Source: Stenotrophomonas sp. VV52
GTDB taxonomy: Bacteria > Pseudomonadota > Gammaproteobacteria > Xanthomonadales > Xanthomonadaceae
NCBI RefSeq assembly: GCF_002893095.1
Contig: NZ_PKQQ01000007.1
Span: forward strand, 186,001-250,000
Direction: 5' to 3'
DNA: 64,000 nt
Shown: positions 5,388 to 32,017 of the stretch, one piece after another
How positions within the stretch are numbered: position 1 is the stretch's first letter
Layout of the letters: every line of letters begins with the position of its first letter
Notes under the pieces: generated by a model
Told to the model about the DNA's origin: nothing
The model's database searches: none
Seen by the model: only the letters and a program-made list of their open reading frames with translations
Translations under genes and position numbers: made by a program

Positions 5388-7196
5388 TCAGCGGAACCGC
5401 GCTTCGATTTCTTCCAGTGTCTTGCCCTTGGTCTCCGGCAGCAGGAACGCGGCCACCAGGAAGTACAGCAACGTGCAGCCGGCCCAGAAGAAGAACATGC
5501 TGGCGTAGCCGTGGTGGCCGACCGTGGGCAGGAAGATCGCGGCGATCACGGTGGACACGAACTGGTTGATCAGCAGTGCGATGCTCATGCCGTTGGAACG
5601 GATGCGGGTAGGCATCAGCTCGGACAACGCCAGCCACACGCAGACGCCGGGGCCCACCGCGAAGAAGGCCACGAACAGCAGGATGCAGCCGGCCACCAGC
5701 CAGCCGTGGGTGGGCGACGGCACCGGGCCGATCACCGCGCGCTCGATGACCAGCGGCGCGCTTGCGGCGGCAGCCGGGTCCGGGAACGGATTGAGGTGGA
5801 GGCGGCGGAAGAACGTGCCGATCACGCTGTCGGCCGAGACCGCATCTTCGCGGCGGATCTGCAGCGTGGTGTCGATCGGGTTGTCGCTGCGCAGCGAGCG
5901 TACGTTGCTGAAGCCGCCATAAGAGTAGGAGACGGTGAGCTGCAGCGGCTGCCCCTCGGCGCTGCCGTCCAGGCGGCGCCACTGCGCGGCATCCATCGGC
6001 AGCGCAAGGGAGTCGCCGACCAGCTGCTGCTGCAGCGTGGCGTGCACGTCCAACCGGCCATGCTCGCTGCGCACGAACAGCAGCGCCGCGCACAGCAACG
6101 CCACGGTGATGCCGCCGGTACCCAGCATCAGCAGGAACTTGCGGCCCTTGCGGTCCACCAGCACCAACGCGACCACGGTCATCAGCGCATTGAGCAGCTT
6201 GATCGAAACGTCGGCCCAGTTGGCCACCGCTCCGGGCAGGCCGGCCTGGTGCAGGATGTTCACCGCATAGGCCAGCACCGAATTGATGCCGGTGGCCTGG
6301 GTGAAGGCCAGCACCAGGCAGGCCAGTATGAATGGCCACACGTAACGGCGGCTCAGGAGCGGGTCGCGCTTTGCGGGCGTGCCGTCGCTGGCGGGGGCGT
6401 CAGGCGCCTGCATGCGGGCCAGGGTGGCTTCCACCTCGGTCGGCGCCACGGTGCGCTGCAGTGCGCGGCGGGCTTTGTCGATGCGACCGCGGCGCACCAG
6501 CCAGCGCGGCGATTCGCTGATCAGCAGCGCGCCGCCGGTGAACACCAGCCCCGGCAGCAGGCAGCTCCAGAAGATGGTGCGCCATGCATGGTCCTTCACC
6601 GCGAACAGCAGGCGCTGCTGCTCTTCGCCGGGCAGGTGCGCCACGGCTGCCGTGGCCACGTCCACGCTGTGGGCGTGGTACAGGCCGATCACCGCCGCCA
6701 ACACGAGGCCGATGGTGAGCAGCAGCTGGAACATTGCCGCACCGCGACCGCGCCGCTCCGGGCTGAGCACTTCAGCCAGGTACAGCGGCACCACCACGCC
6801 GATCAGGCCGCCGCTGATGCCCTGCAACAGCCGCCCCATCAACAGCGGTCCGTAACCCTCCGAGAGCGCCATCACCGGAATGCTGGCGGTGAACAACAGC
6901 CCGGCCAGCACCATCGCCCCGCGCCGCCCGATCAGGTCGGCCACCGCGCCGGCAAACAATGATGAGAGCACGCTGCCCAGCAGTACCGCGGCCACCACGA
7001 AACCCAGCTGCTGGGTGGTGAGCTGCCAGCTGGCCGTAGCGGTGGCCTCGAGATAAGGCAGCGCGCCAGCGATGATGCCGATGTCGATGCCGTAGAGCAG
7101 GCCGCCCATGCCGCCAATGAACAGCAGATAGCGCACCGGCCAACGCGGTGCGTCGGCGACAGCGGGCACGGGCATGGCGGCGGAAGCGTCGTTCAT
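5388..7196 (-). CDS. MFS sugar-porter permease, probable GalNAc uptake (AgaP-like role)
   Basis: Inner-membrane proton-coupled sugar transporter of the MFS sugar-porter family. Diagnostic signatures are GGMGGLLYGIDIGIIAGAL in TM1, GRRG in loop 2-3, SESPRWLVRRGR after TM6, the TM7 segment QATGINSVLAYAV and the C-terminal PETKGKTLEEIE. At 602 residues it is about 120 longer than usual, because a soluble insert of about 120-140 residues, rich in Ser and Asp, lies between TM9 and TM10 (approximately residues 375-505). It is the last gene of the leftward GalNAc operon, 50 nt after agaA. The substrate is inferred from context. Confidence 0.85.
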   Translation of the reverse strand: MNDASAAMPVPAVADAPRWPVRYLLFIGGMGGLLYGIDIGIIAGALPYLEATATASWQLTTQQLGFVVAAVLLGSVLSSLFAGAVADLIGRRGAMVLAGLLFTASIPVMALSEGYGPLLMGRLLQGISGGLIGVVVPLYLAEVLSPERRGRGAAMFQLLLTIGLVLAAVIGLYHAHSVDVATAAVAHLPGEEQQRLLFAVKDHAWRTIFWSCLLPGLVFTGGALLISESPRWLVRRGRIDKARRALQRTVAPTEVEATLARMQAPDAPASDGTPAKRDPLLSRRYVWPFILACLVLAFTQATGINSVLAYAVNILHQAGLPGAVANWADVSIKLLNALMTVVALVLVDRKGRKFLLMLGTGGITVALLCAALLFVRSEHGRLDVHATLQQQLVGDSLALPMDAAQWRRLDGSAEGQPLQLTVSYSYGGFSNVRSLRSDNPIDTTLQIRREDAVSADSVIGTFFRRLHLNPFPDPAAAASAPLVIERAVIGPVPSPTHGWLVAGCILLFVAFFAVGPGVCVWLALSELMPTRIRSNGMSIALLINQFVSTVIAAIFLPTVGHHGYASMFFFWAGCTLLYFLVAAFLLPETKGKTLEEIEARFR

Positions 7197-22083: not shown

Positions 22084-23514
22084 ATGGCCACTACGGCATC
22101 GGCGGCAACGCAGGACGGCTGGATGGCGCGCGCCGCGCTGCGTTCGGCGGCATGGGCAGAAAAGTGGTTCCCCGACGCGTACGTGTTCGCGGTGCTGGGC
22201 GTGGTGATCGTGGCGCTGGCCGCCATGGGCTTCGGCGCTACCCCGCAGGCCACCGCCAAGGCCTTTGGCGACGGCTTCTGGAGCCTGATTCCCTTCACCA
22301 TGCAGATGGCCTTCGTGGTCATCGGCGGCTATGCCGTGGCCACCGCGCCGGTGGTGGCTCGCTTCATCGAGCTGCTGGCCCGGGTGCCGCGCACCGGCCG
22401 GTGCGCGGTGGTGTACGTGGGCCTGGTCAGCATGCTGGCCTCGCTGCTCAGCTGGGGGTTCTCGCTGGTGTTCGGCGGACTGCTGGTGCGGGCGCTGGCC
22501 CGCCGCGAAGAACTGCACATGGACTACCGCGCTGCCGGTGCCTCGGCGTACCTGGGCCTGGGCGCAGTGTGGGCGATGGGGCTCAGCTCCTCGGCCGCGC
22601 AGCTGCAGGCCAACCCGGCCAGCATGCCGCCCGGCCTGGTGGAGATCACCGGCGTGCTGCCCTTCACTGAAACCATCTTCCTGTGGCAGTCGATCGCGCT
22701 GACGGCCGCGCTGATCCTGGTCTCGCTGCTGATCGCGTGGCTGACCGCCCCGGGCCCGGCAACGGCTCGCACTTCGCGCGATTTTGCCGGCGCGGCCCAG
22801 GCCGAACCGGAGCCGCTGCAGCCGCGCGCGCGTGCCGGTGAATGGCTGGAGTACAGCCCACTGCTCACCGTGCTGCTTTCGCTGCTGGCCTTCGGCTGAT
22901 TGTTCAGCGAGTTCGCCAGCAAGCCGGTGGTCACCGCCATTGCCAACCTCAACACCTACAACTTCCTGTTCATTTCGCTGGGGCTGCTGTTGCACTGGCG
23001 CCCGCGCAGCTTCCTCAACGCGGTGGCCAAGGCCGTCCCCAGCACCACCGGCGTGTTGATCCAGTTCCCGCTGTATGGCGGCATCGCCATGATCCTCACC
23101 CACGCCGTGGGCAGTGGCGGCGAAACCCTCGCGCATCGCCTGTCCACCGTGTTCGTGCATATCGCCACCACCGACACCTTCGCGCTGGTAATGGGCATCT
23201 ACTCGGCAGTGCTTGGGTTCTTCGTACCCTCCGGCGGCGGCAAGTGGATCATCGAAGCCCCGTATGTGATGCAGGCGGCCAATGAGCTGAAAGCCCACCT
23301 CGGCTGGGCGGTGCAGGTCTACAACGCCGCCGAAGCCCTGCCGAACCTGATCAACCCGTTCTGGATGCTGCCGCTGCTCGGCGTGCTGGGCCTCAAGGCC
23401 CGCGACATTGTCGGCTTCACCTTCATACAGCTGCTGGTGCACATCCCGCTGGTGCTGGGGCTGCTGTGGGTGCTCGGAATGACCCTGACCTATGTGCCGC
23501 CGGTAATGCCGTAG
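22084..23514 (+). pseudogene. atoE: AtoE-family short-chain fatty acid transporter interrupted by in-frame TGA
   Basis: The two reading frames 22084-22899 and 22900-23514 are in the same phase and together make one TIGR00366/AtoE-like protein of about 476 residues with many membrane segments. The break is a single TGA at 22897-22899, at a position where the flow LLAFG-x-LFSEFA suggests Trp (TGG). Coding quality is unbroken on both sides and later motifs such as FVPSGGGKWIIEAPYVMQAA are intact. Either a recent nonsense mutation or a sequencing error; a functional split protein is unlikely because no start signal follows the stop. Confidence 0.85.
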
Positions 23515-23533: not shown

Positions 23534-26377
23534 TCACCCCGGCGGCCAGTCATGCGCGCGCGACAGGACTGCGTGCAGCACCGCCTGCACCTGAACTTCC
23601 TTCAGGTGTCGGCGCAGCAGGGGTTCCAGCCGGTCGCGCAGGTGCTCGTGGAACAGAATGCGGGGACCGGCGTGCGCTTCGGCTACCACGACGTCGATCA
23701 AAGCGCCCATGGAAATGCGGTCGGCCTGGTGCCTCGTGGGGCCGAACAGGCCTTCCAGCACTGCCAGGCCGCGTGACGGTGCACAGCCGCCGCCCCCACC
23801 GTGCAGCGATACCTGCAGCGTGGCTTCGAATGCCTGCAGTGCGTCCAGTCGCATCGGGCCGACGGGGCTCAGCAGTATCTGGCTCAGGTTGTAGCGAGCC
23901 TGCTCGATCAGATGCGGCTCTTCCCCGGTCTGCCCGAGCTGGTGGCGCAGGCGGGTGTACATCTCGTTGGACTGCTGTCTTCCTGCCGGGTCGCTCTGCT
24001 CGACCGGAGCGAATACCTGGTAGTCCAGCGGCTCCTCGTGCACGGCCGGTGCGCGCTCGCGTGCCCAGTGACGCACGCGCAGATCTTCGGGGTTGAAGCG
24101 GTCCTCTTCCAGCGCCAGCTGGCTGACCGCGTCGCGCAGCACCGAATAGCGATGCAGGGTGCTGCGATAGCGCGCACTTGCTGCGGCCTGGTCACCGGTG
24201 AACGCCGCTTCCGACGCGATGGCCACCTGAAGCCTCTGGCCGAACTCGGTAACGCGCCGATGCAGCAGGTCACGTCGGCGCCGGTTCATGTCGATGTCGT
24301 CGCCATGCGTGCCCAGCGTCCAATCCGGTGCAAGGTGATCGCGGCAGGCGTGGAAGTTCTCCTCTGCACGTTCGGGCAACAACCCCTGCAGGCGCCGATC
24401 ATCACCCGCCAACGCGTCGCGGTTGACCTGCACCGACGCAGGCATCCACTCCTGCCCGGGCGCTTCATTCATCCCGCTGGCATGGAAGTCCACGACCAGT
24501 GCGGCGCGTTTGTCCGGGTAGGGGGCATTGATCAGCCCCACCGCGCGCAGCCGCTCGGGATCCGACAGCGGGCGGTCCACGTACAGCAGGCCCAGCCGCG
24601 CGTCTTGCGACGCTGGGAGATCGCCATGTGCAATCACCAGCTCCACCTGCGGCGAAATGCCTTCCGATGCCCGCTGCGTGGGCAGGCCGCGACTGTCGTA
24701 GCCGGTCAACTGGGTCTGCAGGCGCCCGTCGGCATGGAGGGCACGTTGGTAGTCTTCTGCCTCCTTCGGCGTCTCCACCAGGAGCGTGCCGCGCAGGTTG
24801 CGCTCTGCAACGCGAACAACGCCGTGGAAGTGTTGGCTGATCGCCGTGGCCACCTGCGCTTGGCGCAGCTCTCCAGGGGTGGCCTGGGCATCTGCCGGCA
24901 TATCGCGACTCAGCACCGGGTAGATCGCGCCTCCATCGCGCCATGCCGGCACCACCACGCCGTCGGCCACCGCATGCTCCGGTGGGTAGTGGTACAGCGG
25001 CGCGCCGGGGTCCAGGTCCGCGGCGGGCAGCAGGATCGGCTGCGAACTCAACGTGAGCCAGGTCGAACGCGGCAGGCAGCGACGCAGGCGGCGCAGCAAT
25101 GCCGGCGGGCTTTCCCAGAAGTTGGCATCGACCAGCAGCAGGATCTCGGTGCCGGCTTCCGCTGCAGGCGTCGGCGGGGCGGTCTTGCGTCCCCAACCAC
25201 GAAACACGCGCAGCGGAACCTCGTGTGGCGAACTGGCATGGCCGGCCAGGAACTCGGTGAGCTGGTCGGCCGCCTGCGGGCCCGGCCTGCGCTTGTGGTC
25301 CTGCGGCGCCGGAGTGGGGCGGGCCACTGGCAGCAGTATGCGTAGCCCCTCGAACTCGGGATCCACGCGCAACGCGTGCAGCAGCCAGTAACGTGCGCGC
25401 TGCAGTCCACTGCCGGCGGCAAGACACAGCTGGCCGCCGCCCCGCCTGCCTTCAAAATCACGGGAGCGCAGCGCCTGCAGCGCATGCTGCACGGCGAAGA
25501 ACTGCCCGGGGCGCGCCACGTAGCGTCGTCCATGCGCGCCGGTATGCAGGAAGCCGCGCAGCAACTGCAGGAACCGCGCCGGCCCCAGCACACCCTGCAG
25601 CAGTTCGGCATGGGCGGCCCATGGCGGGTCCAGCGTCACCTGCGCGAAGGGCACAGGACGGTCGCGCAACTGCTCCACCGTCTCGCGGCTCCAGCCATGT
25701 TCCCGCCAGCGCATCCAGCCATGGGCCGGCGTACCCACGCTGGCATAGCAGCCGCCACGCCGGTCCAGGCACAGCAGCAGTTGCGCGTGCAGCGCTGGCC
25801 GATGCGAAGCAAAGGCGGTCTTGCCACGCCACAGGTGGGAAATTCCGGCAGCGACGGTGCCCCAGCGCTTCTCGCGGTCGCGCTCCACGCACGCCAGCAC
25901 GACCAACGGAATGCCATTGACGTATCCGACCAGCTCGCGGATGTCGGGATCGAGCGGATCCGGATACGGCTCCGCATCGGCTATGTCCCAGTGGTTGCGC
26001 TGCACATGTTCCCAGTCGATCAGCGGAACCAGCACCTCGGTGCTGCTTCCACCCGGCAGCTGTTGCACGGTACGCGCGCCCTCCACCAGCAGGCGGTGCA
26101 CGGTCGCGCTGGATGCCTCCCAGTCGAGGCTGTGGCAGCAGGTATCTACTGCGGAAATGATCTCGTGGATGCCTTCCGGCGAAAGCGGCAGCAGCTCGCC
26201 CTGGCGCTCAAACCGGAAGCGCCGCAGCCACGGCAACAGGCGGTTCTCCAGCAGTGTGCTTTCCGGAAGCCCACGAAGCGGACCGAGCTCGCGTGCTTCC
26301 AGGTAGTTCCACCCAAGTCGACGCAACCAGCCCAGCGCCGATTGGCGAACACCGAATCTTCCGTGGTTGACGCTCAT
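23534..26377 (-). CDS. HsdR-like protein with all catalytic motifs degenerate
   Basis: The 947-residue intact reading frame aligns by eye with type I restriction HsdR subunits, but each active-site motif is changed. In the nuclease domain, DIRELVGYVNGIPLVVLACV keeps the Asp, while the E-x-K pair is replaced by A and V (about residues 162-164). Walker A is AAGSGLQRA with Leu in place of Lys (about 325). DEAH is replaced by DANF (417-420), and TGTP by SSQP. The arginine-finger region near YVDRPLSDPERLRAVGLINAPYP lacks the usual arginines. The C-terminal helical domain seems retained. It follows an HsdM-like gene by 217 nt. The enzyme is presumably dead but maintained; its function is unknown. 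Confidence 0.8.
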   Translation of the reverse strand: MSVNHGRFGVRQSALGWLRRLGWNYLEARELGPLRGLPESTLLENRLLPWLRRFRFERQGELLPLSPEGIHEIISAVDTCCHSLDWEASSATVHRLLVEGARTVQQLPGGSSTEVLVPLIDWEHVQRNHWDIADAEPYPDPLDPDIRELVGYVNGIPLVVLACVERDREKRWGTVAAGISHLWRGKTAFASHRPALHAQLLLCLDRRGGCYASVGTPAHGWMRWREHGWSRETVEQLRDRPVPFAQVTLDPPWAAHAELLQGVLGPARFLQLLRGFLHTGAHGRRYVARPGQFFAVQHALQALRSRDFEGRRGGGQLCLAAGSGLQRARYWLLHALRVDPEFEGLRILLPVARPTPAPQDHKRRPGPQAADQLTEFLAGHASSPHEVPLRVFRGWGRKTAPPTPAAEAGTEILLLVDANFWESPPALLRRLRRCLPRSTWLTLSSQPILLPAADLDPGAPLYHYPPEHAVADGVVVPAWRDGGAIYPVLSRDMPADAQATPGELRQAQVATAISQHFHGVVRVAERNLRGTLLVETPKEAEDYQRALHADGRLQTQLTGYDSRGLPTQRASEGISPQVELVIAHGDLPASQDARLGLLYVDRPLSDPERLRAVGLINAPYPDKRAALVVDFHASGMNEAPGQEWMPASVQVNRDALAGDDRRLQGLLPERAEENFHACRDHLAPDWTLGTHGDDIDMNRRRRDLLHRRVTEFGQRLQVAIASEAAFTGDQAAASARYRSTLHRYSVLRDAVSQLALEEDRFNPEDLRVRHWARERAPAVHEEPLDYQVFAPVEQSDPAGRQQSNEMYTRLRHQLGQTGEEPHLIEQARYNLSQILLSPVGPMRLDALQAFEATLQVSLHGGGGGCAPSRGLAVLEGLFGPTRHQADRISMGALIDVVVAEAHAGPRILFHEHLRDRLEPLLRRHLKEVQVQAVLHAVLSRAHDWPPG

Positions 26378-26452
26378 GCACGCACCTCGGGGAGACGGGG
26401 GCGGAGACGAGCGTCCGCGACGACGAAGTTGGGATGGGCGATGTTCATGCTG

Positions 26453-26485
26453 ACAGTGTGTTCGATCACATCCATCTCACACTGT
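26453..26485. promoter_or_regulatory. Inverted repeat in the hsdM-hsdR spacer
   Basis: ACAGTGTG at 26453-26460 and CACACTGT at 26478-26485 form a perfect 8-bp inverted repeat with a 17-nt spacer, about 75 nt upstream of the HsdR-like start. There is no T-run, so an operator is more likely than a terminator. Confidence 0.35.
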
Positions 26486-26594
26486 GTGCATCATTCCGAA
26501 TCATGCGTTCGATGTGCAGAACACGGAACGCGTTATCAATCCATTTTCAAATTCGAATAGAGAACGCCAATCGGTCGCACCTTTACGCGTCGTT

Positions 26595-28094
26595 TCAGGC
26601 CAGTTTCGAGAACTCGCGCTCCAGCGCGTCCAGCTCAGCGTTCAGCTCCTGCTGGATCGCCGCAAACGTCGTTTCCAGCGCTGCACGCCGCGAGCGCAGC
26701 GTGGCCAGGTCGGTAGCAGCCTCAACCGGCACCGGTCGCACGTAACGCGCAATGCTCAGGTTGCCGTGGTTGGCGGTGATCTCGTCGAACCGTGCCAGAT
26801 GCGCCAATCCGGGTTTGCTTGTGCGCTTTGCACACAGGCGCAGCAGCGCTTTCGCTCCCTCCATATCGAGGCGCGGACCACGCTTGCCCGCGGTGGACAG
26901 CCGACGCGCATCGATGAACAGCACCGCCTGGTCCTTCCGCACCCTTCGCAGCACCAGCAGGGCGGTCGCCACCGATGACCCGGCGAACAGGCGGTCCGGC
27001 AGCCCGATCACGGTTTCCACCAGGTTCACGTCCAGCCATGCCTGGCGGATCCGGGCTTCCTCGCCGTCGCGGAACAGCACCCCGTGCGGCACTACTATCA
27101 CCATGCGTCCGCGCTGCGGATCCAGCGTGGCCAGCATGTGCTGGATCAGTGCGGCATGCGCCCACTGGCGGGGCGCGGTGCCGTGCAGGAAGCGCAGGTA
27201 GGGGTCGTGCGCAGCCTGTGCGGACACCCATTTCAGGTGCAGCGGTGGGCAGGCCAGCGCCACGTGGAAGCGCTGCAGGCGACCGTCTTCCAGCAGCGGA
27301 TCCTCCAATGCGTCGCGCGACCGCAGGTGCGGGTTGTCGCTGCCATGCAGCAGCAGGCGCAGGCGAGCCACGGCGCACAGCAGCGGGTCGGCCTCCTGCC
27401 CATACAACGGGTAGCGGTACGCCGGGCTGGCTTCGGCGCCCTGCTTGCGCATCCGGCGCGAAGCGGCCAGCAGCAACGTACCCTGCCGGCAGATGGGGTC
27501 GTACACAGACTCGCGGGCGTCGGGATCGGTAAGCGCCGCCATCAACCAGGCCAACGCACCCGGTACCTGGCCCGCCTCGACCGGGCCGCGCCCGGCCACC
27601 GGGCGCTCCAGCAGACCTTCCACGGCATCGCTGATGCAGACATTGCCAAAGCCGGGCTGTCCACGGAAGTTCAACGCCGGTAGCGCCAGACGTTCCAGCA
27701 GGTGCAGCAGCACCTCGTCACGGCGGGTCTCATCGGAAGGCAGCGCATCGCCGAGTTGCAGCGCCGGGAAGATGCCGCCCAGCTTGCGCGGGTTGGCCAG
27801 CGTGAACACCCGCAGCGCCGTCATCACCCGCAGCCCATTGCCCTGCACGTGGCGTTGCCGGTACAGCGTCTCGAATCGCGCATGGGCCGGAACGCAGAAC
27901 GGCACCGAACGCAACCGGTCGAACGGCGCCTGTGCAGAAGGCGGGGTGCAGGCCTGGTGCGCGTCGCTGGCCAGCTTGAGCAGCAGCAGGGACAGGGTCA
28001 GATGCGTGTCGGCATCGGGACGCCTGACCTCGCCGAGGGCATCACGCGCATGGACCAGGGCGGCGAGAGTTGCCGGGGTTTCGGTTGTCATCAT
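26595..28094 (-). CDS. HsdM-like protein with degenerate SAM and catalytic motifs
   Basis: The 499-residue protein follows type I N6-adenine methyltransferase layout: a helical N-terminal domain, then a methylase fold. The SAM motif is DPICRQGTLL (about residues 199-208) instead of DPxCGSGGF. The catalytic NPPF is CPPL (282-285), losing the essential Asn. Secondary landmarks such as YGQEADPLLCAVARLRLLLHG and VVPHGVLFRDGEEARIR are preserved, so it is a real relative, not noise. The C-terminus is a coiled-coil-like helix that could bind HsdS. It sits between HsdS-like and HsdR-like genes in one direction. DNA methylation activity is unlikely. Confidence 0.8.
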   Translation of the reverse strand: MMTTETPATLAALVHARDALGEVRRPDADTHLTLSLLLLKLASDAHQACTPPSAQAPFDRLRSVPFCVPAHARFETLYRQRHVQGNGLRVMTALRVFTLANPRKLGGIFPALQLGDALPSDETRRDEVLLHLLERLALPALNFRGQPGFGNVCISDAVEGLLERPVAGRGPVEAGQVPGALAWLMAALTDPDARESVYDPICRQGTLLLAASRRMRKQGAEASPAYRYPLYGQEADPLLCAVARLRLLLHGSDNPHLRSRDALEDPLLEDGRLQRFHVALACPPLHLKWVSAQAAHDPYLRFLHGTAPRQWAHAALIQHMLATLDPQRGRMVIVVPHGVLFRDGEEARIRQAWLDVNLVETVIGLPDRLFAGSSVATALLVLRRVRKDQAVLFIDARRLSTAGKRGPRLDMEGAKALLRLCAKRTSKPGLAHLARFDEITANHGNLSIARYVRPVPVEAATDLATLRSRRAALETTFAAIQQELNAELDALEREFSKLA

Positions 28095-28140
28095 CGCGTG
28101 TACGGAGTGATCGGATCGCCGACGCTACACCCGGATTCTC

Positions 28141-28161
28141 AATATCGGAAAACGCGATATT
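28141..28161. promoter_or_regulatory. Inverted repeat upstream of the HsdM-like gene
   Basis: AATATCG-N7-CGATATT (28141-28147 and 28155-28161) lies in an AT-rich 104-nt spacer between the HsdS-like and HsdM-like genes. This suggests an operator and an internal promoter for hsdM-hsdR. Confidence 0.45.
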
Positions 28162-28198
28162 TGCCTATAAATCATGGGCATAACAGTGCATCACTGGG

Positions 28199-28798
28199 TC
28201 AGATGGAGACGCCGCCGAGGAGGTGTGCCGCATAGCGCGAGACCTCTTCATTGCGCGCTGCGATCAACTGCTCGCAGTGGGATCGCTCAAGCAGTGCCGC
28301 TCTGGCGATGGTCACGATCCGCTGCTGTTGGTGCAGCGGCGGCAGCCTCATCGGCAGGTCCTCGACGGATGCCTTCCGAAGGCTCTGCTGACGTGATCCG
28401 GCCGATTGCCTGTGTAAATGCTCCCGGGCGGAGGACTGGTTCAACTGCCAGGCGATGAAGGCAGGCAAAGCCCTGGCCGCATCAGCTACCCGAATCACGT
28501 AAAGGTGAGGGCTGCACACCGTCCTCTCTGGCGGATCGGTGAGCAACGCTGCCATCGGGTGACCACCTCGTGCTGTAAGCACCACGTCCCCATCCTTCAC
28601 CCAGTCCGGCGATTTTCGGTTGCTCAGATGCGTGCGCATCAGGGCATGCACATCGTCCATGCCATTCACACCGACGTTCTTCAACTGAATGACCTGCACC
28701 GATCCATCCACGGCTGCTCTGATCGCTCCGCGAAAAGGATGTCCCTGGCGGATGCTGGCGATGTCTCCCAGCCTGGCGATGGTGTGTGAAGTGTTCAT
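28199..28798 (-). CDS. HsdS-like half specificity subunit (single TRD)
   Basis: About 199 residues from ATG 28798; two in-frame starts upstream (28810, 28852) are possible, 28810 having GGGGTG at usable spacing. The opening ARLGDIASIRQGHPFRG is the typical start of an HsdS target-recognition domain, and GDVVLTARGG, QSAGSRQQSLRKASVEDLPMRLPPLHQQ and the following helix are the standard TRD end and conserved central helix. Full HsdS proteins carry two TRDs in about 400-450 residues; this has one, so it would need to dimerise to bind a bipartite target. It is the first gene of the degenerate type I operon. Confidence 0.82.
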   Translation of the reverse strand: MNTSHTIARLGDIASIRQGHPFRGAIRAAVDGSVQVIQLKNVGVNGMDDVHALMRTHLSNRKSPDWVKDGDVVLTARGGHPMAALLTDPPERTVCSPHLYVIRVADAARALPAFIAWQLNQSSAREHLHRQSAGSRQQSLRKASVEDLPMRLPPLHQQQRIVTIARAALLERSHCEQLIAARNEEVSRYAAHLLGGVSI

Positions 28799-28852
28799 CG
28801 CAGGGACCATGCGCGGCACCCCGAGAGGCGTCAACGTGCGTATCTGCACCAT

Positions 28853-29236
28853 TTCAAATGATGCGAATTCAGGTGCTGGAACTGGAACGTGTTTGGCGCT
28901 TTACTGATAGGGACGGTGAAATTGCTTTCCCCAGTGCCAATGACGGCATCAATCGGACTTCGATAGGTTGCGCAAATCGAATGACACCGAATCCGCGCGC
29001 GGGTGCGCGTTCATGCTGCTGACTGCGGCGGAAAGCGGATAGGGACATGAGCGCATTCCATCGTGGAATAAGCCTTGCCCAAGAGCTCGCCAAAGCCCCT
29101 GGAAACACGGTATCTGAAGCCGAATTCAGGCCCGCGTTTGACGAATTCGTATGCAAATTGCCACATGGTTTTAACCGACCCCTGCACAGCATGGCCATGA
29201 CCGCGGCATCCCGCCCGCGGCTTCCGGAGATCCGAG
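28853..29236. other. Stretch without convincing gene
   Basis: No reading frame here has both a ribosome-binding site and recognisable protein character. It probably holds the promoter of the hsd-like operon on one side and that of the small Q-rich gene on the other. An open plus-strand frame from 29047 runs out of phase across the Q-rich gene and is not called. Confidence 0.4.
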
Positions 29237-30006: not shown

Positions 30007-30063
30007 TACCACGGCCATGGTAATTATCATGGCCGTGGTATATAACATGGCCATGGTAAGAGG
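30007..30063. promoter_or_regulatory. Three 18-bp tandem operator repeats
   Basis: Units start at 30010, 30028 and 30046, each CAYGGCCRTGGTA plus an AT-rich tail. The first two also form a 13-bp perfect inverted repeat (TACCACGGCCATG / CATGGCCGTGGTA, 8-nt spacer). The AT tails supply likely -10 boxes (TAATTAT, TATATAA). The array ends at the ribosome-binding site of the next gene, as expected for autorepression by its wHTH product. Confidence 0.75.
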
Positions 30064-30068
30064 TGAGT

Positions 30069-31214
30069 ATGGCCATTCAATCCCCGAAGCGAAGCAGTAG
30101 TGAGGCGCCGGCAGAGCTGGTAGCCGAGCTGTTGCGTACCCACGGCTGGGAGGCCCACGTAGATCATGGCCCAGGTGGGCTTCGGCCAGATCTCGTGGCG
30201 CGTAGCGGATCCAAAAACTACGCCGTGGAAGTGAAGTCCGTCAGCGAAGGGCGCCCCGATCGCGTAATTGCACTGCTTTCCCAAGCCATCCTGCAGGCCT
30301 GCCGGCACGCGGAACGGTCAGGGTTGTCTCCTCTGGCAATCGTGTACGTCGGGAACGCATCGCCCTCGCTTCAGCAGAAGGTCGAGCAGTTCCATCACGA
30401 CTACGCATCGGATGTTGCCGTTGGTCTGGTTACCGGAGAAGGAGGTAGTCACTTCATTGGTCCGGGTCTGGACTCACTCAATGTCGAGGCTCCACGCCGC
30501 TTCGGCAAGCTGAAAGCGGCAAAGCCGCGCAGGGCGAACGACCTGTTCTCCGACCTCAATCAGTGGATGCTCAAGGTGCTGCTGGCACCGGAGCTGCCCG
30601 AGGATCTCCTGAATGCCCCACGAGCCGACTACCGCTCTGTCTCCGCCTTGGCGGGAGCGGCAGACGTCTCCCTGATGAGCGCATCCCGATTCGTGCAACG
30701 TCTTCGGGAAGACGGATTCCTTGACGACTCCGGTGATGCCTTCCGCTTGGTGCGACGTCACGAGTTGTTCAAACTGTGGCAGTCAGCTGCGCTGCGCTCT
30801 TCCCCCGAACTACGCATGAGTTACGTGATCCCCGGTTCTGGAATACGCCAGCTGCAGAAGTCAGCATCACGCCTGAACGCATGCATAGGGTTGTTCGCCG
30901 CGGCAGACCTGCTGAACCTGGGGCATGTAAGTGGCGTCCCCCCGCATCTCTACGTGCGGCGCCTCGCACCTTCAAGCAAGGCGGACTGGCCAGGTCTGGT
31001 TCCTTCCGGTCCAGGCGAGCATCCTCAGATCATCCTGAGGCAGGCCAGCGCTCCCGAGTCCATGTTCCGTGGTGCGGTGAGGGTCGATGACGTACCCGTC
31101 GCAGACGTGCTGCAGATCTGGCTGGATGCCTCCGCCCACCCTGCGCGCGGCGCTGAGCAGGCCGATCTGCTGAGGCGCAAGGTACTTTCCGGTGTCCTCG
31201 GGGATAACGCGTGA
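30069..31214 (+). CDS. PD-(D/E)XK nuclease-like plus winged-helix protein, antitoxin/regulator candidate
   Basis: The 381-residue protein from ATG 30069 (AGAGG just upstream) has an N-terminal restriction-fold domain: RPDLVA (D41), YAVEVKS (E54, K56) and the Gln helix LLSQAILQA (Q72), a full PD-(D/E)XK signature. A winged-helix segment follows near residues 195-235 (SVSALAGAADVSLMSASRF, then QRLREDGFLDDSG). The downstream nucleotidyltransferase overlaps by four bases. AbiE-type type IV toxin-antitoxin pairs have a wHTH antitoxin before the nucleotidyltransferase; a nuclease-like N-terminus on this partner is the unusual part. Confidence 0.75.
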   Translation: MAIQSPKRSSSEAPAELVAELLRTHGWEAHVDHGPGGLRPDLVARSGSKNYAVEVKSVSEGRPDRVIALLSQAILQACRHAERSGLSPLAIVYVGNASPSLQQKVEQFHHDYASDVAVGLVTGEGGSHFIGPGLDSLNVEAPRRFGKLKAAKPRRANDLFSDLNQWMLKVLLAPELPEDLLNAPRADYRSVSALAGAADVSLMSASRFVQRLREDGFLDDSGDAFRLVRRHELFKLWQSAALRSSPELRMSYVIPGSGIRQLQKSASRLNACIGLFAAADLLNLGHVSGVPPHLYVRRLAPSSKADWPGLVPSGPGEHPQIILRQASAPESMFRGAVRVDDVPVADVLQIWLDASAHPARGAEQADLLRRKVLSGVLGDNA

Positions 31215-32017
31215 ACGATCGCGAGTCATTCGCGACGCTCGCACAAACGCTGGCCCCGTGGGCTGATCAACTGGTGTTCGTCGGCGGGTGGGCCCACCGG
31301 CTGTATCGGCTGCACCCGAAGGCAACGCGGCCTGCCTACCAACCTCTGGCAACGCTGGATGCAGACGTTGCGTTTGCCGAGCGCGAGCGGCTGGAGGGCA
31401 GCATCAAACTGGGATTGCAACAGGCCGGGTTCAAGGAACAACTCACGGGAACCCATCGGCCGCCGGTTTCTCAGTACACGTTGGGTGATGAGTCCGGTGG
31501 CTTCTATGCTGAATTTCTGACACCGTTGATCGGGCGGGGCGTCACCCGTGAAGGGACGCCCATAGCTACGCTGTCGAAAGCGGGCATCACGGCACAACGC
31601 CTTCGCTACCTTGAGCTGCTTCTCCATGCTCCGTGGAAGGTGGAACTAAACAGCGAATGGGGCGCTGATGCCCCCGTTGATCTGCGCATTCCCAACCCTG
31701 TGAGCTTCATCATCCAGAAGCTCCTGATCCATGAAGATCGGGCGCGCGACAAGAAAGCGCAGGACATTCTCTACATACACGACACGCTTGAGCTCTTCGG
31801 CGCAGACATCGACGACCTTGCCGTCGTTTGGAGGGACACCGTGCGCGGAGCGATGCACGTGAAGTGGGTGAACAACCTGTTGTCGACCAAAGACGCTCTC
31901 TTTGGGCAAATGAACGATCAGATCCGTGACGCGGCGGTACTGCCGCAGGATCGTCAACTCGAACCGGAGAGAATGCGGGCCATGTGCCACGCAGCGCTTG
32001 GTGAAATTCTGGAGTGA
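31211..32017 (+). CDS. Nucleotidyltransferase-fold protein, AbiEii-like toxin candidate
   Basis: The 268-residue protein starts with GTG 31211, overlapping the previous stop (GTGA). It has the polymerase-beta-like nucleotidyltransferase core: LVFVGGWAHRLYRLHP followed by TLDADVAF, i.e. the GG...DxD metal-binding pattern. The middle part (SFIIQKLLIHEDR, then KKAQDILYIHDTLELFG) resembles the substrate/helical region of DUF1814/AbiEii-type enzymes. Related toxins modify tRNA ends or use GTP. Coupling to the upstream wHTH protein supports a toxin-antitoxin or abortive-infection role. Confidence 0.75.
   Translation: MNDRESFATLAQTLAPWADQLVFVGGWAHRLYRLHPKATRPAYQPLATLDADVAFAERERLEGSIKLGLQQAGFKEQLTGTHRPPVSQYTLGDESGGFYAEFLTPLIGRGVTREGTPIATLSKAGITAQRLRYLELLLHAPWKVELNSEWGADAPVDLRIPNPVSFIIQKLLIHEDRARDKKAQDILYIHDTLELFGADIDDLAVVWRDTVRGAMHVKWVNNLLSTKDALFGQMNDQIRDAAVLPQDRQLEPERMRAMCHAALGEILE

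What the first reader, a model, noticed from the sequence alone, without database searches (positions are those of the whole stretch)
23534..28810. Type I restriction-modification operon with every catalytic motif lost but reading frames intact
HsdS-like (single TRD), HsdM-like and HsdR-like genes lie in order. HsdM has CPPL for NPPF and DPICRQG for DPxCGSG. HsdR has lost the E and K of its nuclease, the Walker A Lys, DEAH, TGTP and the arginine finger. Neutral decay would bring stops and frameshifts; a 947- and a 499-codon frame stay open. This suggests a maintained, DNA-binding but non-cleaving, non-methylating complex, possibly a sensor, roadblock or anti-phage scaffold not yet described.
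Basis: partly seen in the sequence, partly recalled or inferred. Interest (0 to 1): 0.88.

Follow-up and report, generated by a model that had tools for sequence, protein, structure and literature searches.

The report
Dead restriction operon kept by selection
A three-gene bacterial DNA-cutting defence system has lost the key residues it needs to cut or mark DNA, yet related species keep it intact at one chromosomal spot together with a matching DNA signal in its own promoters, which suggests that it now works by binding DNA, perhaps as a gene regulator.

Summary
S-, M- and R-like genes (window 28798-23534, minus strand) occur in 17 of 91 Stenotrophomonas-genus genomes at one chromosomal site, without stops, R 96-38% identical. 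Members examined all lack M motif IV Asn and motif I Gly, and R nuclease E and K, Walker A Lys and DExx Glu; intact relatives outside keep them. dN/dS is well below 1 and the operon tree follows the flanking genes. It is not a decaying copy.

New: the "HsdS" descends from a second, half-length S subunit ("half-S") that precedes hsdM in intact operons, which also carry a full HsdS. A palindrome, GCATCATT-N3-AATGATGC, lies 66-67 bp before S in the family and, less strictly, before R. 14 of 17 intact half-S promoters have it about 64 bp before half-S and over the start codon; three distant ones lack it. Eleven of 18 half-S loci from elsewhere have it too.

Best reading: a non-catalytic half-S/M(/R) complex that binds this operator and regulates its own operon. 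Binding and any wider role are inferred.

The parts
28199..28798 (-). S-like gene: half-S subunit (one target-recognition domain plus one long dimerisation helix), 199 aa from the likely true ATG at 28798 (frame open to 28852)
   Evidence: Methylase_S hit. AlphaFold model pLDDT 87.6, pTM 0.81. Foldseek matches to Esub1 and HsdS subunits. Length 198-199 aa in 17 of 17 family loci, with starts picked by homology.
26595..28094 (-). M-like gene: HsdM pseudoenzyme, 499 aa (DPICRQG, CPPL)
   Evidence: N6_Mtase 1.3e-52. Motif columns in 18 family rows from 17 genomes: motif IV Asn 0 of 18, motif I first Gly 0 of 17. dN/dS.
23534..26377 (-). R-like gene: HsdR pseudoenzyme, 947 aa; nuclease E and K, Walker A Lys and DExx Glu lost
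   Evidence: HSDR_N hit. Foldseek ranks 1-15 are all chains of EcoR124I entries. Motif table. No stops listed in 17 of 17 genomes.
28846..28864 (-). O1: 19-bp palindrome GCATCATTTGAAATGGTGC, 66 bp before the S start
   Evidence: 14 of 16 family loci as a 19-mer at -66/-67, the other 2 (L045, L046) as an 18-bp form
28829..28834 (-). -35-like TTGACG of the S promoter; a weak -10-like CATGGT would be at 28806-28811, so transcription would start close to the ATG
   Evidence: TTGAC within -45..-20 of the S start in 16 of 16 family loci; position; the -10 and start site are inferred
26488..26506 (-). O3: second copy of the palindrome, GCATGATTCGGAATGATGC, between M and R
   Evidence: 10 of 16 family loci with at most 3 mismatches, 6 of 16 weaker (5 mismatches)
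26374..26448 (-). 24-codon leader frame whose stop overlaps the R start codon (ATGA), possible translational coupling
   Evidence: such an overlapping leader in 15 of 16 family loci; its amino acids are not conserved; no chance control was run

Best explanation
The operon is a vertically inherited pseudoenzyme derivative of a half-S type I restriction-modification system. SHOWN by comparison: the key catalytic residues of M and R are gone throughout the family; full-length frames, homology to all three subunits, one chromosomal site and purifying selection remain; the S gene is the orthologue of the half-S that heads intact hsd operons; a palindrome is conserved in the promoters of both dead and intact operons. 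INFERRED: two half-S chains dimerise through their helices and, together with two dead M subunits (S and M are reported to bind DNA only as a complex), clamp GCATCATT-N2-3-AATGATGC. In intact operons this complex acts as the operon's own controller, on a site upstream of the promoter (O1) and a site over the start codon (O2). In the family, cutting, translocation and methylation have been lost while the DNA-binding controller was kept, with sites before S (O1) and before R (O3). The complex is therefore a methylation-blind, sequence-specific DNA-binding regulator of at least its own genes. R, newly conserved at dozens of positions, would be a structural partner or output arm whose target is not known.
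For: Family: 17 of 91 genus genomes carry M- and R-like genes with no stops listed; identity to the window 96% to about 42% for M and 96% to 38% for R. Same site: the flanking transporter follows R directly in 16 of 17, and in G026 lies about 5 kb off on the same contig. The S+M+R tree matches that of the flanking genes inside the carrier clades. Residues: nuclease E 0 of 16, nuclease K 0 of 16, Walker Lys 0 of 16, DExx Glu 0 of 16, motif IV Asn 0 of 18, motif I first Gly 0 of 17, against 15 of 15 (R) and 3 of 3 (M) intact; 17 R and 15 M intact rows, overlapping with those, are normal by eye. dN/dS for S/M/R 0.05-0.51 by NG86 over 16 family pairs. 59 positions of R are near-invariant in the family with residues never seen in 15 intact sequences. 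The window genome has no other Methylase_S, N6_Mtase or HSDR_N match.

Operator: first seen in the family, then tested on intact operons: O1 at -62..-68 in 14 loci, mean 3.6 mismatches to the family-derived pattern against 6.0 in shuffles (lowest shuffle mean 5.2); O2 at exactly -5 in the same 14. Three more distant intact half-S loci lack it, so 14 of 17. Elsewhere: 18 half-S loci, 11 of 18 significant, 8 of 18 with at most 2 mismatches against 0 of 412 control windows. Half-S, M and R are the only hsd genes shared by dead and intact operons, which points to half-S/M as the binder. Literature: S and M bind DNA only together and S homodimers read palindromes (PMC3874165, passages); an engineered half-HsdS with HsdM methylates a palindrome (PMC6158711, passages).
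Against: No binding or expression data. The operator could belong to another regulator. O2, the start-codon site, is not found in the dead family, so autorepression as imagined for intact operons cannot be claimed; O1 sits upstream of the promoter, as an activator site would. O3 is weak in 6 of 16 loci. Three distant intact half-S loci (L061-L063, 28-30% identical to the query half-S) show no site (p 0.1-1.0), and 7 of 18 half-S loci elsewhere lack a significant site, including all three acetic acid bacteria. Locus by locus the test on intact operons is modest: 7 of 14 below p=0.05, two at about 0.3. The 14 intact loci are not independent (several belong to one genus), and most site-bearing loci elsewhere share an M 70-76% identical to that of L048, so shared descent of the operon explains part of the conservation. 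Half-S of the two intact pairs has NG86 dN/dS of 0.31-0.42 (few changes), so it is not strongly constrained there. No clear regulon: the third match in the window genome lies inside a histidine-kinase gene. S/M/R evolve much faster than their neighbours. 74 of 91 genomes lack the genes.
Confidence: 0.56

Rival explanations
1. Maintained dead complex whose job is something other than transcription, for example binding invading or chromosomal DNA, or sensing phage anti-restriction proteins such as Ocr or ArdA. The operator merely controls expression and may be bound by an unrelated regulator.
For: No regulon outside the operon found. R, the largest gene, has no need to exist for half-S/M binding. 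R evolves fast (38-61% identical to the window beyond the three closest relatives, where the transporter is 92% or more identical), as in conflict with phage.
Against: No effector gene in the operon. Only 4 of 17 carriers have another N6_Mtase match against 32 of 74 non-carriers (Fisher p=0.17), so it does not accompany active type I systems. Palindrome and half-S keep company across families.
Confidence: 0.27
2. Slowly decaying remnant: a single inactivation in the ancestor, with frames open only because GC-rich DNA has few stops and too little time has passed.
For: Fast protein evolution relative to neighbours. Absent from 74 of 91 genomes, with tidy empty sites in 7 of 20 non-carriers fetched.
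Against: dN/dS well below 1. Simulated neutral change gives many stops. S is 198-199 aa in 17 of 17. New near-invariant residues. O1 and the ATGA overlap conserved.
Confidence: 0.05
3. The proteins still catalyse with unusual residues (a non-canonical methylase or nuclease).
For: Folds kept. Motif I Asp and second Gly, the first Pro of motif IV, a Walker glycine and the DExx Asp are kept.
Against: The essential Asn of motif IV is Cys or Arg, and the Walker Lys, DExx Glu and nuclease E and K are absent in the 16 R rows examined.
Confidence: 0.05
4. The palindrome is the site of a host transcription factor common in Proteobacteria that happens to control these operons.
For: The site sits beside a -35 box, like an activator site. 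A looser pattern matches several places in each of most of the 14 genomes with intact operons (reversed-pattern control 0-1 per strand).
Against: The tight pattern occurs in only 4 of 74 genus genomes without the operon against 13 of 17 at the operon (pattern built from these loci). The same site follows half-S loci across families, one of them a betaproteobacterium.
Confidence: 0.07

Closest known systems
Type I restriction-modification enzymes (EcoR124I, EcoKI)
   Same: Subunit set S, M, R. R model matches EcoR124I HsdR best (Foldseek E 3.6e-22, TM 0.45-0.49 by query), M matches HsdM structures by sequence, S matches HsdS domains.
   Different: Key catalytic residues for methylation, ATP hydrolysis and cleavage absent; no two-TRD HsdS.
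Intact half-S type I operons (half-S - M - [RhuM] - full S - R - YgjP) in the same taxonomic family and beyond
   Same: Orthologous half-S, M and R; same palindrome before half-S in 14 of 17.
   Different: Intact operons keep all motifs, a full HsdS and, in those 14, a second palindrome over the start codon.
Truncated HsdS (NgoAV, EcoR124I delta-50, EcoDXXI) and 'Type 1 1/2' methylases such as M.AhdI (PMC3874165; section 35 and passages seen)
   Same: Single-TRD S that homodimerises and reads a palindrome with M.
   Different: Those methylate; here M is dead, and a regulatory use is proposed.
Esub1 (PDB 8VSQ/8VSR, seen only as Foldseek rows; no paper found)
   Same: Stand-alone half-S-sized protein, best structural match (E 1.4e-10, TM 0.71-0.76).
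   Different: Function not known to me beyond the PDB titles (one is a complex with Prx); 18-19% identity.
RptR, repressor of type I RM defence islands (PMC12255303; abstract, passages and Discussion read)
   Same: First gene of a type I RM operon, represses its own promoter through palindromes near the start.
   Different: A 9-kDa all-helical protein binding TAGCTA; unrelated to HsdS.
C proteins of type II RM systems (recalled, and mentioned in PMC12255303)
   Same: Operon-encoded controller with paired operators.
   Different: HTH proteins; type II systems.

Membership tests
Functional type I restriction-modification system | HsdM with motif I (DPxCGxG) and motif IV (NPPF/Y) | tested here: not met
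   Motif IV Asn 0 of 18, motif I first Gly 0 of 17 family rows
Functional type I restriction-modification system | HsdR with PD-ExK nuclease and Walker A/B motor motifs | tested here: not met
   E, K, Walker Lys and DExx Glu each 0 of 16
Functional type I restriction-modification system | HsdS with two TRDs | tested here: not met
   S is 198-199 aa with one TRD; no other Methylase_S match in the window genome
Functional type I restriction-modification system | Methylation and ATP-dependent cleavage | not testable with these tools
   needs the bench
HsdR/HsdM/HsdS homologues (descent, not function) | Sequence and fold homology to the three subunits | tested here: met
   (M by sequence only; it was not folded)
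Half-S type I family | Single-TRD S upstream of and adjacent to hsdM, orthologous to half-S of intact operons | tested here: met
   window S 37-46% identical to five intact half-S, same position
Half-S type I family | Homodimeric S giving 2M+2S and a palindromic target | not testable with these tools
   inferred from one TRD plus one long helix (residues 155-195) and the palindrome
Transcriptional autoregulator | Conserved operator-like site in its own promoter | tested here: met
   not in three distant intact loci
Transcriptional autoregulator | The protein binds the operator and changes expression | not testable with these tools
   no binding or expression data
RptR | Small all-helical protein, TAGCTA sites in the promoter | tested here: not met
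   S is a mixed-fold HsdS half; TAGCTA in 0 of 16 S and 0 of 16 R upstream stretches of 200 nt
MADS defence system (mad2, mad5) | MAD proteins scoring above the NCBIfam cut-offs | tested here: not met
   M and S reach only 29.5 of 720 and 20.6 of 400 bits; PADLOC mad2 (3e-20) and mad5 (3e-15) score below its general type I models; other mad genes were not sought

The most novel reading that the evidence does not exclude
Half-S is a widespread controller of type I restriction operons: an HsdS-derived DNA-binding regulator, working with M on a conserved pair of palindromes. In Stenotrophomonas the controller has outlived its enzyme, leaving a complete pseudoenzyme S/M/R complex that serves as a sequence-specific DNA-binding regulator.
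Probability: 0.42. Interest if true: 0.88.

Novelty: new variant of a known kind. Interest (0 to 1): 0.77.

Why it matters
Restriction systems are thought to be kept for cutting foreign DNA or marking their own. Here all three subunits survive long after both activities are gone, at one locus and under selection, so something else they do must be worth keeping. The conserved palindrome gives a concrete, cheap test of what: does half-S with M bind it and control the operon? If so, a subfamily of type I restriction operons in Gammaproteobacteria and at least one betaproteobacterium carries an unrecognised built-in controller made from a specificity subunit, which would explain why an extra half-length S gene precedes hsdM there. 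I saw no report of either in the listings of ten searches of an open-access library or in the parts of six papers that I opened; subscription papers are not covered.

Tried and rejected
Rejected: lone decayed copy (17 genomes share the losses; dN/dS well below 1). Mobile cargo: no phage match; 448 plasmid records match, none over 80% of the query and all under 60% identity, the 5 listed being 21-25% identical over at most 66%; same chromosomal site with empty sites in relatives (20 of the 74 genus genomes lacking the genes were fetched, none shows S/M/R remnants at E 1e-5 over more than 40 aa, 7 of 20 have the two flanking genes about 0.47 kb apart). Partner or decoy of an active type I system: other N6_Mtase matches in 4 of 17 carriers against 32 of 74 non-carriers, p=0.17. 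Wider regulon: the third operator-like match in the window genome lies inside a histidine-kinase gene; one in G028 lies between two annotated-looking frames but in that genome alone. A looser pattern matches too many places to define a regulon. MADS: scores far below cut-off.

Led nowhere: YN00 failed for distant pairs, and dN/dS of the transporter failed for window pairs because of its internal stop. The R profile found no PDB chain by sequence. The operator test on loci elsewhere was first run with a fixed spacer: 5 of 10 plasmid loci and 3 of the 6 class-genome loci scored, of 8, fell below p=0.05. After seeing 18-bp forms I allowed spacers of 2 or 3 and got 11 of 18; that change was made after looking. 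The first tree run failed on a thread setting and was repeated.

Rows dropped: G029's R is split over two contigs, and its fragment (L047) was left out of alignment A1, and the S/M/R tree; G027, also split, was left out of that tree. Of the 22 genomes outside the dead family that one search found, 17 were fetched. Four distant intact R (L061-L064) and L065 (same genome as L050) were left out. The half-S of L061-L063 were left out of the operator counts; checked, they lack the site. L052 and L064 have no half-S on their contigs.


Full report
1. What is there. On the minus strand, three genes stand in order: S-like (28199-28798; frame open to 28852), M-like (26595-28094) and R-like (23534-26377). 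They match Pfam Methylase_S, N6_Mtase and HSDR_N. In the window genome (4.43 Mb, 36 contigs) these are the only matches to those three families at the thresholds used. The genus is Stenotrophomonas: of 9 hits in a pattern-based scan of 84,980 named species genomes, 8 carry that name, and the ninth, labelled Bacillus subtilis, has the contig length of a member of this genus (G072) and is probably mislabelled. The scan is not exhaustive.

2. The losses are real and shared. In alignments of 16 family and 15 intact R sequences, the nuclease Glu and Lys, the Walker A Lys and the DExx Glu are present in 15 of 15 intact and 0 of 16 family sequences. The nuclease Asp remains in 3 of 16 and the arginine finger in 5 of 16. 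The DExx Asp and one Walker A glycine remain in 16 of 16. In M, motif IV Asn is absent in 18 of 18 family rows (8 Cys, 10 Arg; 17 genomes, one in two pieces), and the first Gly of motif I in 17 of 17 rows with a letter there. By eye, 15 intact M rows and 17 intact R rows keep their motifs; these overlap and come from 17 of the 22 genomes outside the dead family found. So homologues with normal motifs exist only as a distant outgroup (the nearest in this genus: M at most 38% and R about 27% identical, not beside the flanking genes), not inside the family.

3. The family. 17 of 91 genus genomes carry M- and R-like genes in tandem with no internal stop listed; R identity to the window runs 96, 95, 76, 61, 58, 58, then 41-38% (two genomes have the genes split over contigs). 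A profile search of 395 genomes drawn from the taxonomic family, two candidates scored per genome, shows a gap from 1350 bits (the lowest of 5 dead members sampled) to 310 bits (HsdR-like frames of 1080-1196 aa), so the dead form was seen only in this genus. The gene after R is the same transporter (TIGR00366 family by profile, below that model's cut-off) in 16 of 17, followed by a ubiA-like gene (name recalled) where fetched. In 7 of 20 fetched non-carriers the two flanking genes lie about 0.47 kb apart without remnants. The S+M+R tree and the tree of the two flanking genes agree in their branching within the two carrier clades; a clade of six non-carriers falls among the carriers with weak support (54-68). 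This is vertical inheritance at a fixed site, with at least one loss likely.

4. Selection. Over 16 pairs within the family, NG86 dN/dS is 0.05-0.23 for S, 0.07-0.31 for M and 0.10-0.51 for R, against 0.00-0.21 for the flanking genes in the pairs where these could be computed (deep pairs are saturated and YN00 failed for several). The window against its two nearest relatives gives 0.07-0.22. The proteins evolve fast (R 38-61% identical where the transporter is 92% or more), but under constraint. Substitution-only neutral simulation of the R gene yields a mean of 3.8 stops at 0.06 and 8.6 at 0.15 substitutions per site. In R, 71 positions are near-invariant in the family and invariant in the 15 intact sequences with the same residue, and 59 are near-invariant in the family (at least 15 of 16) with residues never seen in the intact ones, several of them Trp and Arg. 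This points to renewed constraint, not drift.

5. Anatomy. The R model (pLDDT 74, pTM 0.61) matches EcoR124I HsdR over its length (ranks 1-15 all chains of EcoR124I entries; TM 0.45-0.49 by query length, 12-13% identity). The S model (pLDDT 87.6, pTM 0.81) is one recognition domain plus a 40-residue helix. Its best matches are the stand-alone Esub1 (8VSR, 8VSQ) and then the S subunits of PacII, 1YF2 and EcoKI. M was not folded; it matches HsdM structures by sequence.

6. Where it came from. The nearest intact operon in the genus reads half-S (201 aa) - M - RhuM - HsdS (410 aa) - R - YgjP-like (L048). The family's S is the orthologue of that half-S. The full HsdS, RhuM and YgjP-like genes are missing, with only 80-257 bp between M and R. 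Between intact operons half-S is conserved while the full HsdS can differ: against L048, half-S is 95% (L049) and 94% (L050) identical, the full S 32% and 87%. Half-S orthologues head hsdM in eight annotated plasmid operons (Sphaerotilus, Proteus, Methylobacter twice, Vibrio, Acetobacter, Gluconobacter, Komagataeibacter); a full S follows M directly in six and after a small gene in one, while one Methylobacter operon has a PDDEXK nuclease there. In ten loci without annotation, M follows half-S in nine; the tenth is cut by its contig end.

7. The operator. Aligning the family's intergenic DNA showed a palindrome GCAYCATT-N3-AATGSTGC just before a TTGAC box upstream of S (TTGAC in 16 of 16), and a second copy upstream of R. 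The prediction that intact operons share it was then tested. In 14 intact half-S promoters the best match lies at -62 to -68 (mean 3.6 mismatches; shuffles mean 6.0, lowest of 500 shuffle means 5.2; 7 of 14 individually below p=0.05). A second copy lies at exactly -5, over the start codon, in all 14 (1-3 mismatches); it was noticed and encodes part of the N-terminus. Three more distant intact half-S loci (L061-L063), left out of those counts, have no such site: 14 of 17. The 14 are not independent, several being from one genus. In the family O1 is at -66/-67 as a 19-mer in 14 of 16 and as an 18-bp form in 2 of 16. O2 is not found. O3 before R has at most 3 mismatches in 10 of 16 and 5 in 6 of 16 (p 0.06-0.10 for the latter). 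For wider reach, 18 half-S loci were examined: 8 from a search of 369 class genomes (all 8 hits besides the window's own at E 1e-25) and 10 plasmid loci (9 taken one per genus from the 25 listed rows of 34 records, plus one seen). With spacers of 2 or 3, 11 of 18 have a significant site and 8 of 18 have one with at most 2 mismatches, against 0 of 412 control windows from the same loci; seven show two sites of at most 4 mismatches each, 59-74 bp apart. Seven of 18 do not reach significance, among them the three acetic acid bacteria (half-S 35-37% identical to the query). Eight of the ten unannotated loci have an M 70-76% identical to that of L048 and one, L123, 42% with no site, so the site marks a subfamily of type I operons. 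A tight form of the pattern, with one mismatch allowed, matches 14 of 17 carriers (13 of 17 at the operon) and 4 of 74 non-carriers; the pattern was built from the operon loci, so only its rarity elsewhere is informative.

8. Mechanism proposed. A review states that neither S nor M binds DNA alone while the complex does, and that single-TRD S subunits dimerise and read palindromes (PMC3874165, passages and section 35). An engineered half-HsdS with HsdM methylates the palindrome ACC-N5-GGT, and its authors remark on the likeness of half-HsdS dimers to palindrome-reading transcription factors (PMC6158711, passages). Half-S, M and R are the only hsd genes that dead and intact operons share, and half-S is the only one with a recognition domain. 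I therefore infer that half-S with M binds the palindrome. In intact operons the pair of sites, one upstream of the promoter and one over the start, would let the complex control its own synthesis. In the family the enzyme is gone, and the binder and sites before S and before R remain. This also explains why a dead M is kept: S needs it to bind. Why R is kept is not explained; its new near-invariant residues suggest a partner surface. Since O1 and O3 lie upstream of where their promoters should be and O2 is lost, activation is as possible as repression in the family.

9. Known relatives. RptR (PMC12255303; abstract, passages and Discussion read) is a precedent for a first-gene autorepressor of type I operons, but is an unrelated 9-kDa helical protein, and its TAGCTA site is absent from the 16 S and 16 R upstream stretches. 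The listings of ten searches of the open-access library showed no report of a dead, conserved type I operon or of an HsdS-derived operon controller. Four further papers were opened at passages only (PMC9613975, PMC12707154, PMC7394358, PMC6158711).

10. Verdict. Observation confirmed. Interpretation partly supported: maintained and non-catalytic is well supported; DNA-binding is likely; the regulator reading is the best-supported mechanism but rests on sequence conservation alone.

Noticed in passing
window 22084-23514 (+), stop at 22897-22899: The transporter gene convergent with R carries one in-frame TGA in the window genome; the other matches listed in the genus search show no stop inside.
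   Followed up: partly
window 26374-26448 (-) and 14 other family loci: A short leader frame of 9-35 codons ends by overlapping the R start codon (ATGA) in 15 of 16 family loci although its amino acids are not conserved; no chance control was run.
   Followed up: partly
L033, between S and M (oriented about 5864-6350): In one relative an XRE/HTH-like regulator gene on the opposite strand lies between S and M (family judged by eye).
   Followed up: no
half-S start codons of 14 intact loci among L048-L067: The second palindrome spans the start codon, so the half-S N-terminus (such as MANDA or MNIDA) is partly dictated by the operator.
   Followed up: partly
L092 (JAHREJ010000011.1): A record titled Bacillus subtilis carries a family member on a contig of the same length as one of the Stenotrophomonas-genus genome G072; probably a mislabelled assembly.
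   Followed up: no
window 30063-32017 (+): A gene pair near the operon, one an NTP_transf_8 nucleotidyltransferase and one without a Pfam hit, might be a toxin-antitoxin or defence pair; among the loci compared it was matched in the window only.
   Followed up: no
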